This document shows positions 24,831 to 29,588 of a stretch of 64,000 nt of DNA, one piece after another. Under the pieces are notes generated by a model that did no database searches, was not told the DNA's origin, and worked only from the letters and a program-made list of their open reading frames with translations. The stretch's first letter is position 1; each line of letters opens with the position of its first letter. The position numbers and the translations under genes were made by a program. Location of the stretch: assembly GCA_016187945.1 (NCBI GenBank), contig JACPIT010000006.1, positions 124,001 through 188,000 on the forward strand, given 5' to 3'. This DNA is from Opitutia bacterium. GTDB lineage: Bacteria > Verrucomicrobiota > Verrucomicrobiia > Opitutales > Opitutaceae.

Positions 24831-24925
24831 TCTTTCTCTCTCCTCTTTCTCTTAGTCTTTCTCCCCGTCCGTCCGATCGCGTCGCGCAGCCGCGCCGAGA
24901 GAAAGAGAAAGACTAAGAGAAAGAC
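24831..24925. repeat. Long inverted polypyrimidine/polypurine repeat
   Basis: 24831-24864 is CTTTCTC-rich with a CTTAGTC centre; 24896-24925 is its GAAAGAG/GACTAAG complement. About 20 bases match exactly. It lies between the oxidoreductase and acyl-CoA synthetase genes and could fold as a stable hairpin in the transcript. Confidence 0.7.
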
Positions 24926-24950
24926 AAAAGAAACGACCCCGCCTCCTCCG

Positions 24951-27359
24951 TTGAATCGCGCGCCGCAAAACCCCGCGCCCCCCGCCGCCTCGGTAGGGCG
25001 AGTCGTCCCCGACGAGCCGTCTTCCGCTGCGGCCGCAACCCACGGCTCGTCGGGACGACTCGCCCTACCTTCCGCCTTCGTCTGCGAATCCGCCGCCTAC
25101 GAGCTCCTCACGCGCGCCGGCCTCCACCCTCCGCGCCACGCCGCGCTCGACTCCGTGGGCCAGCGCGCTTGCGCGCGCCTCTTCGCGCCCGGCGACCCCA
25201 TCGTCCTAAAAGGCCTCGGCGACGAACTCTGGCACAAATCCGAACTCGGCTGCGTGCGCTTCCTGCCCTTCGACTCCGCGCGTCTCACCTCCGAAGCCGC
25301 CGCCATGCGCGCACGCGTCGAAACGCACGGCCACGCGTGGATCGCCGCGCTCGCCTGCGAACGCATCGCGATTCAGCGCCAGCGCGACCTTCCGTCCGAA
25401 GCCTTCGTCTCGCTCTCGCGCACCGACGCCGGCTGGGTCGTGCTCTGCGGCTTCGGCGGCCTGCAAGCCAACGCCCTCGCCGAACTCGCCCCGCCCTGCC
25501 GCTGGCCAATCGACGTCGTCACCCCCGAGCAAGCGCTCACCGATTTCAGCGCCCACCTGCTCGGCCGCGCCTGGCTCGGCGATCTCCGCGACACGCACCC
25601 GCTCACGACCGGCGAAGACCTGCGCGCGTTCTTCGCCTCGCTCTGGCAACTCGCCGCGCTCGCCGAAGCGGAAGGCCTCGCGTTGCTCGAGCTGAATCCC
25701 GTCGCGCTCGACCCGACCGGCACGCCGCGCCCGCTCGACGCCGTGGGCCAGCGCGCTTGCGCGCGCTCCCCCGAACGCCACGCGCCTCCGGCCGACTTCC
25801 TCGCCGCACTCCGCACCCCGCGCCGCATCGCGCTGGCCGGCGTCTCCGCGCAAGAAGGCGGCGTCGGCCGCACGATCCTCGACAATCTCCGCCGCTACGC
25901 GCTCCCGCCCGGGGATCTGATCCTCGTCAAGAAGCTCGCCCCAGACGATGGAGGGCGGCGCTCCATCGCCGCCGAGACCAGGTGGCCCGCGACCTCCGGG
26001 CGCGGGTCGGAGCAGGACCGACCGTCGTCCGCAATCACCCGCCCTCGGAGAGGCCGGGCCACCGAAGACGAAACGCTCACGCGTTCCGCTACGCCCCAAA
26101 CAGAATTCCTCGGCCTCCCCTGTATCCCCGACGTCGCTCCGCTGCGCGACGCGCCCGTCGATCTCCTGATCCTCGCGCTCCCCGCGCCCGCCGCCGCGGC
26201 GACGCTCGAAGCCCTCATCGCGCAAGGCGAGGGCGCCAGCTGCGTCGCGCTCGTCGCCGGCGGCATCGGCGACGGTGCCGACACGACCGGTCTCGGCGCG
26301 CGCCTCTCGACGCTCCTCCGCGAAACGCGCGCCGCCGGCCGCTGGACGCCCGCCGTGCTCGGCCCGAATTTTCTCGGCCACTGGTCGCCCGCGCTCGACC
26401 TCGACAGCTCGTTCATCCCGACTGAAAAACTCGCTGCGCCCGCGCGCACCGGCGGCGAGTTGACGCTGCTCAGCCAAAGCGGCGCGTTCCTCCTCTGCCG
26501 CCGCTCGCGCCAGCCGCAACTCCGCTTCGGCCTCGGCATCGCGCTCGGCAACCAGATGGACGTCGCGATGTGCGACGTGCTCGCCGCCCTCGCGAGCGAA
26601 GAACACCCCGGCCCGGTCGCGTGCTACGTCGAAGGCTTCGGCCCCGGACAACTCGCGCCGTTCGCGCAGGCCGCGCGCGAACTCGCCTCGCGTGGCGCGC
26701 GCGTCCTGTTGCACCGCGCCGGCCGCACCGAGGCCGGACAGGCCGCCGCCGCGAGCCACACCGGCGCGATGGCCGGCGACCTCGCGCTCGAGCGCGAGCT
26801 GCTCGAACGCAGCGGCGTGCGCTTCACCGGTTCGATCGCCGAATTCGACGCCGCGCTCGCCTGGCTCGGCGCTTACCCGCGCCTCACTAAAGGCCCCGTG
26901 GCGCTGCTCACCAACGCCGGCTTCGAGAGCGTAAACGGCTCCGATCTTTTCGGCCGCGATCTTCCCGCCGCGACGCTCGACGCGAACGCCACCGCGACGC
27001 TCGCGGCCGCGCTCGCCGCGAAAAACCTTGGCGGACTCGTCAGTCCTCGACTGCCCCTCGACCTACCCCCCATGGCCGACGAGTCCGCTTTCCTTTCCAC
27101 CGCAGAAATCCTGCTGCGGGAGAGCGCCGTGCTGGTGGTCGGGCTCGTGCCGTTCACGCGCCAGCTCGCGACCGCGCCCGATCCCGCGCGGGAATTCGCG
27201 CGCCGCCTCGCCGCCCTCGCGCGCAACGCCGGCAAACCGCTCGCCGTGGCCGTCGATGCCGGGCCGGCCTACGAAGAATATCGCGCGGCCTTCGCCGCGG
27301 AAGGCGTGCCGACCTTCGACCGCGTCGAGAACGCGCTGCTGGGACTGCGGGTGTTGTAA
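24951..27359 (+). CDS. ADP-forming acyl-CoA synthetase (beta-alpha fusion) carrying in-frame repeat insertions
   Basis: 802 residues from TTG 24951; no ATG or GTG start lies before the conserved region. Residues ~42-275 are the ATP-grasp (beta) part (KGLGDELWHKSELG, LLELNPVAL). ~280-802 are the CoA-binding and ligase (alpha) parts, with ALAGVSAQEGGVGRTILDNL, LGPNFLG, LLSQSGAF and the phosphohistidine His603 in AASHTGAMAGD. The enzyme turns acyl-CoA, ADP and Pi into acid, CoA and ATP. Four blocks look foreign: residues ~15-40, 69-76, 265-272 and 333-383 are encoded by palindromic repeats also seen in intergenic DNA. The frame stays open through all of them. It probably uses acyl-CoA made by the oxidoreductase upstream. 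Confidence 0.88.
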   Translation: MNRAPQNPAPPAASVGRVVPDEPSSAAAATHGSSGRLALPSAFVCESAAYELLTRAGLHPPRHAALDSVGQRACARLFAPGDPIVLKGLGDELWHKSELGCVRFLPFDSARLTSEAAAMRARVETHGHAWIAALACERIAIQRQRDLPSEAFVSLSRTDAGWVVLCGFGGLQANALAELAPPCRWPIDVVTPEQALTDFSAHLLGRAWLGDLRDTHPLTTGEDLRAFFASLWQLAALAEAEGLALLELNPVALDPTGTPRPLDAVGQRACARSPERHAPPADFLAALRTPRRIALAGVSAQEGGVGRTILDNLRRYALPPGDLILVKKLAPDDGGRRSIAAETRWPATSGRGSEQDRPSSAITRPRRGRATEDETLTRSATPQTEFLGLPCIPDVAPLRDAPVDLLILALPAPAAAATLEALIAQGEGASCVALVAGGIGDGADTTGLGARLSTLLRETRAAGRWTPAVLGPNFLGHWSPALDLDSSFIPTEKLAAPARTGGELTLLSQSGAFLLCRRSRQPQLRFGLGIALGNQMDVAMCDVLAALASEEHPGPVACYVEGFGPGQLAPFAQAARELASRGARVLLHRAGRTEAGQAAAASHTGAMAGDLALERELLERSGVRFTGSIAEFDAALAWLGAYPRLTKGPVALLTNAGFESVNGSDLFGRDLPAATLDANATATLAAALAAKNLGGLVSPRLPLDLPPMADESAFLSTAEILLRESAVLVVGLVPFTRQLATAPDPAREFARRLAALARNAGKPLAVAVDAGPAYEEYRAAFAAEGVPTFDRVENALLGLRVL
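24993..25068. repeat. REPIN-like element inside the acyl-CoA synthetase frame
   Basis: GTAGGGCGAGTCG...CGACTCGCCCTAC, same family as 9521-9573 and 61932-62004. It is translated near the N-terminus if the TTG start at 24951 is right. Confidence 0.75.
25147..25177. repeat. GGCCAGCGCGCTTGCGCGCG unit, copy 1 (in frame)
   Basis: Encodes LDSVGQRACAR. All but two of its bases are repeated at 25735-25765, in the same frame. Related units lie in intergenic DNA at 29530-29588 and 31377-31431. Confidence 0.75.
25735..25765. repeat. GGCCAGCGCGCTTGCGCGCG unit, copy 2 (in frame)
   Basis: Encodes LDAVGQRACAR at the junction between the ATP-grasp and CoA-binding domains. Confidence 0.75.
25947..26100. repeat. 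Composite palindromic insert (in frame)
   Basis: Opens with GATGGAG...CTCCATC (25947-25967), followed by GGTGGCCCG (25981) pairing with CGGGCCACC (26055-26063). It encodes ~51 Arg/Ser/Thr-rich residues that interrupt the CoA-binding domain between LVKKLAPDD and EFLGLPCIPD. Confidence 0.65.
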
Positions 27360-27377: not shown

Positions 27378-27451
27378 GTAGCAGCCGACGTAAGGAGGCT
27401 GAGTGCACTCGCGACGCAGGCCCAAGCCAGCCTCCTTACGTCGGCTGCTAC
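27378..27451. repeat. Perfect 23-bp inverted repeat (GTAGCAGCCGACG family)
   Basis: Arms 27378-27400 and 27429-27451, starting GTAGCAGCC and ending GGCTGCTAC. It lies between the converging acyl-CoA synthetase and pgl genes. There is no T-run, so it is not a classical terminator. A further arm of this family is at 28455-28482. Confidence 0.8.
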
Positions 27452-29529: not shown

Positions 29530-29588
29530 GTAGGCCAGCGCGCTTGCGCGCGCAAGAACGTCATTCGGCGCGCGCAAGCGCGCTGACC
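29530..29588. repeat. REPIN-like pair (GTAGGCCAGCGCGCTTGC family)
   Basis: Left arm GTAGGCCAGCGCGCTTGCG, right arm ends CGCAAGCGCGCTG. Intergenic relative of the two in-frame units in the acyl-CoA synthetase gene. Confidence 0.75.

What the first reader, a model, noticed from the sequence alone, without database searches (positions are those of the whole stretch)
24951..26100. One acyl-CoA synthetase gene carries four in-frame palindromic insertions
Residues ~15-40, 69-76, 265-272 and 333-383 are encoded by palindromes that match intergenic REP-like families (9521, 61932, 29530, 31377). Two copies of the GGCCAGCGCGCTTGC unit keep the same frame (VGQRACAR) and almost the same neighbouring bases. 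The frame stays open through all of them. This recalls Rickettsia palindromic elements, which insert in frame into proteins, but the units here look like GTAG-headed REPs. The gene may be tolerant to insertion, or may be decaying.
Basis: partly seen in the sequence, partly recalled or inferred. Interest (0 to 1): 0.72.

Follow-up and report, generated by a model that had tools for sequence, protein, structure and literature searches.

The report
Mobile repeats inserted inside an enzyme
In a bacterium related to Opitutus, short hairpin repeats of mobile type have landed in frame inside an acyl-CoA synthetase gene, and inside other conserved genes, apparently without breaking them, and related species carry different repeats, or none, at the same spots; the kind of event is known, but the repeated use of the same protein sites is worth a closer look.

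Summary
The palindromes are real and at the stated places. The gene (24951-27359, TTG start) encodes a fused ADP-forming acyl-CoA synthetase of an Opitutaceae genome. Against 29 orthologues sites 2 and 4 are lineage-specific in-frame insertions, site 1 is extra in a variable N-terminus, and site 3 is not an added block: ancestral LDAVGRR sequence was overwritten by a REP core (net +1 codon). The elements are GTAG/GTGG-headed REPs and REPINs: six units of five families, three stacked at site 4. Two families flank a RAYT transposase gene elsewhere in the genome. Site 4 is a recurrent landing place: relative G005 has an unrelated palindromic repeat there. dN/dS to an outgroup equals that of relatives, so decay is not supported. 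The same occurs in Mfd, a SNF2 helicase and YyaL (compared with relatives) and in five further candidate genes. At the Mfd sites species tend to carry their own resident REP variant, and relative G007, with no copy of the two variants counted, is empty at all four E1 sites tested. Intragenic GTAG REPs, most numerous in Opitutus terrae, were reported in 2013 (PMC3733652): a new, unusually rich member of a known kind. The gain/replacement/loss at fixed protein sites is the newer part.

The parts
24951..27359 (+). fused ADP-forming acyl-CoA synthetase gene (ATP-grasp, CoA-binding, succinyl-CoA-ligase-like domains), TTG start, 802 aa
   Evidence: ORF; Pfam/NCBIfam; PDB relatives; fold match 9y43_B TMt 0.77
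24992..25069 (.). site 1: complete REPIN of family E1 (two inverted GGTAG-headed REPs, 78 nt), residues 15-40
   Evidence: family flanks a RAYT gene at G000:C11
25155..25178 (+). site 2: single GTGG-headed REP of family E2 (VGQRACAR), net +6 residues against relatives
25743..25766 (+). site 3: single E2 REP core overwriting an ancestral LDAVGRR-like stretch, net +1 residue
25947..25973 (+). site 4, element a (GGTGGAGGGCGGCGCTCC family; the weakest of the five families)
   Evidence: copy in L108
25981..26063 (.). site 4, element b: REPIN GGTGGCCCGCGACC...CCGGGCCACC, partly shared with relative G007
26069..26093 (-). site 4, element c: single REP, reverse strand reads CGTAGCGGAACGCGTGAGCGTTTCG
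25945..26095 (+). whole site-4 block, residues about 333-381; no insert in 25 of 29 relatives

Best explanation
These are REP and REPIN elements (short non-autonomous palindromes thought to be copied by RAYT, a Y1/HUH single-strand transposase) that got into the gene at a few places where changed or extra residues are tolerated: the N-terminal tail, the stretch just before strand 83-90, and above all the loop after strand 323-326 in the CoA-binding domain. Because these elements are GC-rich they hold few stop codons, and selection kept only events whose net length preserved the frame. Translation then yields insert peptides, disordered in the case of sites 1 and 4. Site 4 has been hit repeatedly, in this genome by three families and in a relative by an unrelated palindromic repeat. 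Shown: lineage-specific presence, family membership, RAYT genes flanked by two of the families, open frame, purifying selection on the rest of the gene. Inferred: movement by RAYT, translation of the inserts, harmlessness for the enzyme, and copying of site 2 from site 3.
For: Empty sites: 25 of 29 relatives lack any insert at site 4, and the extra residues of site 2 are unique to this genome among the 29 of 30 rows that cover it. G005 carries at site 4 a different palindrome (REERSEEAIQLDCHGALRAPRND) whose core occurs at 22 places of that genome with up to 2 mismatches, 10 of them exact, control 0. Families: E1 84 BLAST matches counted per strand, 40 of 142 candidates scored; E2 10 exact 15-mers, of which all 8 outside the gene have an inverted partner within 110 nt with up to 4 mismatches; E4 47 matches, 40 of 108 candidates scored. 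RAYT: 8 Y1_Tnp matches, the one at C11 with E1 arms on both sides and the one at C12 with E2 arms on both sides. Selection: dN/dS to G003 0.277 for this gene, 0.286 for G007 and 0.273 for G001. Model: pLDDT under 50 only in 1-39 and 333-381. Same pattern in Mfd, SNF2 helicase and YyaL.
Against: Site 1 lies in a variable N-terminus; only the absence of another ATG/GTG/TTG before the conserved region (read by eye) argues that it is translated, and the TTG has no clear Shine-Dalgarno sequence. Low pLDDT is expected for any segment without homologues in the alignment. No proteomics. E4a, b and c could not be tied to a RAYT (none within about 1.5 kb of the 8 Y1_Tnp matches). With 2 mismatches the genome-wide E2 count (163) does not exceed the control (193), so only exact or paired copies are secure. 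Direct dN/dS between this gene and G007 (0.327) or G001 (0.296) is above that of G007-G001 (0.226). The genome is a 16-contig assembly, 95.7% complete.
Confidence: 0.88

Rival explanations
1. The gene is a pseudogene in early decay that collects insertions because nothing selects against them.
For: Several inserts in one gene; G000-G007 dN/dS of the beta part is 0.487, higher than 0.257 for G007-G001, and the whole-gene values with G000 (0.327, 0.296) exceed 0.226 for G007-G001.
Against: No stop or frameshift in 802 codons; dN and dN/dS to the outgroup G003 equal those of the relatives without the inserts of sites 1-3; net lengths respect the frame; other conserved genes (Mfd, SNF2, YyaL) show the same.
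Confidence: 0.07
2. The inserts were kept for a function, for example as RNA hairpins that tune translation or mRNA life, or as linkers that changed the enzyme.
For: REPs are thought to act at the RNA level (PMC3733652, passages); site 1 sits at the 5' end of the message; E4b seems shared with G007 (spacer of equal length, 14 of 27 identical, shuffle P 0.014).
Against: Presence is patchy among close species, different repeats occupy the same site, and G001, the sister of G007, has none.
Confidence: 0.1
3. The segments are ordinary protein sequence that happens to be palindromic.
For: True in part for site 3, where LDAVGRR is ancestral and G007, G001, G003 and G012 already have CTCGACGCCGTGGGCC.
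Against: Site 2 has no counterpart in any relative that covers it and site 4 none in 25 of 29, and they match repeat families found across the genome.
Confidence: 0.02

Closest known systems
Intragenic GTAG REPs (Di Nocera et al. 2013, PMC3733652; section 15 and passages read, supplements not seen; the author name is recalled)
   Same: GTAG/GTGG-headed palindromes inside ORFs as singles, dimers and groups; highest number of GTAG ones in Opitutus terrae, of the same bacterial family (recalled); double inserts in its uvrA genes; recB of two Xanthomonas species hit at about the same site; flexible linkers or loops proposed.
   Different: Here six units of five families in one gene, three families stacked at one site, and comparison with close relatives showing empty, shared, replaced and truncated states at fixed sites.
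REPINs and RAYT (PMC3116915, 2011; passages read)
   Same: Inverted REP pair with spacer; RAYT association; excision of REP doublets reported.
   Different: Described there as lying in extragenic space; here inside protein-coding frames.
Rickettsia palindromic elements, RPE (from passages in PMC3733652)
   Same: Palindromic repeats inserted in frame in protein genes.
   Different: End in CGTC according to PMC3733652 and occur in Rickettsia; here GTRG-headed, GC-rich, with RAYT genes, in Verrucomicrobiota.

Membership tests
GTAG REP / REPIN | GTAG or GTGG head at the foot of a stem-loop | tested here: met
   E1 GGTAGGGC.., E2 GTGGGCC.. (GTAGGCC at 29530), E4b GGTGG/GGTAG, E4c CGTAGCGG on the reverse strand. 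E4a GGTGG in a genomic copy but GATGG here: weaker. The folding itself was not computed.
GTAG REP / REPIN | many copies in the genome | tested here: met
   E1: 69 arms of one variant with up to 1 mismatch; E2: 10 exact; E4b about 17 other places and E4c about 15 (the weaker half at E 0.06-0.2), counted by hand; E4a only a few.
GTAG REP / REPIN | inverted pair with variable spacer (REPIN) | tested here: met
   E1 spacers 10-34 nt in 21 parsed copies; E2 paired in 8 of 8 exact copies outside the gene; at sites 2, 3 and 4c only single REPs.
GTAG REP / REPIN | association with a RAYT (Y1 transposase) gene | tested here: met
   For E1 (L127) and E2 (L128). Not found for E4a, b, c.
GTAG REP / REPIN | mobilisation by that RAYT | not testable with these tools
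   needs biochemistry
GTAG REP / REPIN | location outside genes | tested here: not met
   These copies are intragenic; 6 of the 22 distinct E1 places held lie in frame inside genes (hand count). Extragenic location is usual, not required (PMC3733652).
Rickettsia palindromic element | insertion in frame into protein genes | tested here: met
Rickettsia palindromic element | CGTC-tagged units in Rickettsia | tested here: not met
   GTRG heads; relatives are Opitutaceae, Candidatus Didemnitutus
ADP-forming acyl-CoA synthetase | domain set and fold | tested here: met
   NCBIfam equivalog cut-offs not reached, so the substrate is open

The most novel reading that the evidence does not exclude
A small set of protein loops in this genus act as long-lived docking places for REPs: elements are gained, overwritten by the species' own current REP variant or by another family, truncated in frame and lost, so that the sequence of a loop in conserved proteins such as Mfd follows the history of the resident RAYT/REP system rather than that of the protein.
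Probability: 0.4. Interest if true: 0.65.

Novelty: new member of a known kind. Interest (0 to 1): 0.48.

Why it matters
It gives a set of natural in-frame insertion experiments in conserved proteins, with empty, filled, replaced and shortened states in related species. That allows a direct test of how mobile hairpins create new protein segments, and of whether RAYT chooses targets or selection alone picks the loops.

Tried and rejected
Decay of the gene: not supported, on dN/dS and distances to G003. Site 3 as an insertion: rejected. A count of E2 with 2 mismatches as evidence of a family: rejected, as the control is as high. Of the 12 in-frame rows, L073 and L082 were dropped as chance matches to a lone 15-mer, and two rows (L068, L092) are the gene itself. 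The codon test is lenient (threshold 0.15; L061 scores 0.17 and 0.19). Loci L157-L159 were left out as fragments (27 of 30 loci used, plus G000, G007, G001; three of the 27, L141, L146 and L152, are partial). That every REP lands at a pre-existing GTRG: seen at site 3, not seen at Mfd A or SNF2, so not claimed. Shared origin of the Mfd A element in G000 and G012: equal spacer length, but 7 of 29 spacer bases alike, so open; likewise SNF2 G000-G002, equal length, 9 of 24 alike (P 0.15), though both share an odd right arm. The first codon-usage script had one training gene out of frame; it was rerun corrected.

Full report
What the gene is. The window is part of a 5.47 Mb, 16-contig genome. The nearest named relatives are Candidatus Didemnitutus and other Opitutaceae. 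The gene at 24951-27359 encodes 802 residues with ATP-grasp, CoA-binding and succinyl-CoA-ligase-like domains and follows genes for a 2-oxoacid:ferredoxin oxidoreductase. The model (mean pLDDT 83.8) matches 3-hydroxypropionyl-CoA synthetase 9y43 (TMt 0.77). The only ATG, GTG or TTG ahead of the conserved N-terminal region is the TTG at 24951 (codons read by eye), so if the enzyme is made with that region, site 1 is translated.

What the inserts are. Site 1 is a complete REPIN: two inverted REPs GGTAGGGCGAGTCGTCC(C)CGACGAGCCG with a spacer; 21 parsed copies of this family (E1) in this genome have spacers of 10 to 34 nt. Sites 2 and 3 carry GTGGGCCAGCGCGCTTGCGCGCGC, one arm of family E2; the 8 exact copies outside the gene all have an inverted partner within 110 nt (up to 4 mismatches). 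Site 4 holds three neighbours: element a, REPIN b and single REP c, each with relatives elsewhere in the genome, a with only a few. Eight Y1_Tnp matches are present; the one at C11 has E1 arms on both sides and the one at C12 has E2 arms on both sides, the arrangement called a REPtron (term from PMC6006769, passages read). None of the three site-4 families was found beside a Y1_Tnp match.

Are they insertions? One search found matches in 20 of 95 genomes, the own one included; 13 relatives hold a near-full orthologue. One search gave 30 named loci, of which 27 entered the alignment of 30 rows with G000, G007 and G001. The only internal extra blocks of 4 or more residues are site 2 (this genome only) and site 4 (this genome, G007, G003, G012, G005); the N-terminus and C-terminal tail also vary. 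At site 3 the relatives have LDAVGRR-like sequence; G007, G001, G003 and G012 share the DNA CTCGACGCCGTGGGCC, so here 21 nt were replaced by 24 nt that complete a REP core. The 11 bases in front of the site-2 REP equal the ancestral bases in front of site 3 but for one, while relatives lack them at site 2; the simplest reading is that site 2 was copied from site 3 (inference).

Site 4 as a recurrent target. G005 has there a palindromic repeat of another kind, found at 22 places of its genome with up to 2 mismatches, 10 of them exact, control 0. G003 and G012 have a short block of unknown origin. G007 shares REPIN b with this genome at the same position, with a 27-nt spacer of equal length and 14 identical bases (shuffle P 0.014). 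Yet G007 and G001 are sisters on this gene (support 0.987 to 1.0) and G001 is empty, with the sequence usual in outgroups. Excision, recombination or two insertions remain possible.

Function and selection. dN/dS to the outgroup G003 is the same for this gene (0.277) as for G007 (0.286) and G001 (0.273). Direct pairs with this gene are somewhat higher (0.327 with G007, 0.296 with G001, against 0.226 for G007-G001), most in the beta part with G007 (0.487) (Nei-Gojobori counts by my own script). The model leaves only 1-39 and 333-381 below pLDDT 50; this agrees with disordered insert peptides but is also what a lack of homologues gives. Site 2 lies in a predicted helix (70-77) of good confidence.

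Not a peculiarity of this gene. Of 65 distinct elements examined from the fetched loci of three searches (not all copies in the genome), eight outside this gene lie in frame in other genes: Mfd, YyaL/DUF255, an HrpA-like RNA helicase, a SNF2 helicase, a WD40 protein, an alpha-amylase, a TPR protein and a sialidase-like protein (domains from Pfam; the names Mfd, HrpA and YyaL are my reading). By hand, 6 of the 22 distinct E1 places held are in frame inside genes, this one included. Three were compared with six relatives. Mfd site A: filled in G000, G012, G005 (and G003, cut by a contig end), empty in G001, G007, G002. Mfd site B: E1 type in G000, G002, G012, another GGTAG-headed palindrome in G001 and G005, empty in G007, no data for G003. 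SNF2: filled in G000 and G002, a remnant in G005, empty in G007, G001, G003, G012. YyaL: filled in G000 and, altered, in G003, a half in G001, empty in G007 and G005; no match in G012 and G002, which are 86% and 73% complete. The other five were not compared with relatives.

Species-own variants. With up to 1 mismatch on both strands, the arm variant with TTCTCCGAACGAGC occurs 34 times in G003, 29 in G012, 15 in G005, once each in G000 and G001, and 0 in G007 and G002; the variant with CGTCCCGACGAGC occurs 69 times in G000, 19 in G001, 13 in G005, 5 in G002, 2 in G012, 1 in G003 and 0 in G007. At the Mfd sites G012 carries its own variant in all four arms and the cut G003 in the one seen; G000 has its own in both arms of site A and in the right arm of site B, G002 in the right arm of site B. 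Against this, the left arms of site B in G000 and G002 and the site A element of G005 are of a third kind (CCTCCGGAYGAGCC) that I did not count. G007 is empty at all four E1 sites tested; in the 54 kb of G007 that I held (overlaps included) no E1 arm was found with up to 6 mismatches, but the third kind was not counted genome-wide. At Mfd B the 29-nt spacer is 24 of 29 identical between G000 and G002, hence one old insertion; G012 has the same length with 14 of 29 identical to G000 (P 0.034), which fits an old insertion with arms later overwritten but does not prove it.

Known or new. PMC3733652 (2013; section 15 and passages read, supplements not seen) reports REPs inside genes in several species, most GTAG ones in Opitutus terrae, double inserts in its uvrA genes, and recB of two Xanthomonas species hit at about the same site. 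The kind is therefore known, in a related bacterium. In eight library searches (listings and starts of abstracts seen) I saw no account of turnover of intragenic REPs at fixed sites between sister species; that is a limited search of open-licence papers.

Verdict. Ordinary in kind, rich in detail: a new member of a known kind, with a testable new question about docking loops.

Noticed in passing
27378-27451: Another perfect GTAG-headed palindrome (arms 24 nt, 100%) just after the stop codon of the gene.
   Followed up: no
24837-24931: Imperfect AG/CT-rich palindrome between the oxidoreductase gene and the TTG start; relatives G007 and G001 have Ser/Phe- and Lys/Arg/Glu-rich translations in that stretch.
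   Followed up: no
L036 (G000:C3), Mfd: Two in-frame E1-type REPINs in one transcription-repair coupling factor, at sites that vary between species.
   Followed up: partly
L050 (G000:C9:1167482), HrpA-like helicase: E1 insert plus a second repeat-like stretch VGRAGFSRPPSAADRQGPAKAGPT in the same protein.
   Followed up: no
G007: No copy of the two E1 arm variants counted with up to 1 mismatch, though its sister G001 has 20: an apparent loss of a REP family from a genome.
   Followed up: partly
L097 (G000:C15:74477): REPIN of family b directly after what looks like a signal peptide of a TonB-dependent receptor, possibly in frame (read by eye); it is not among the rows.
   Followed up: no
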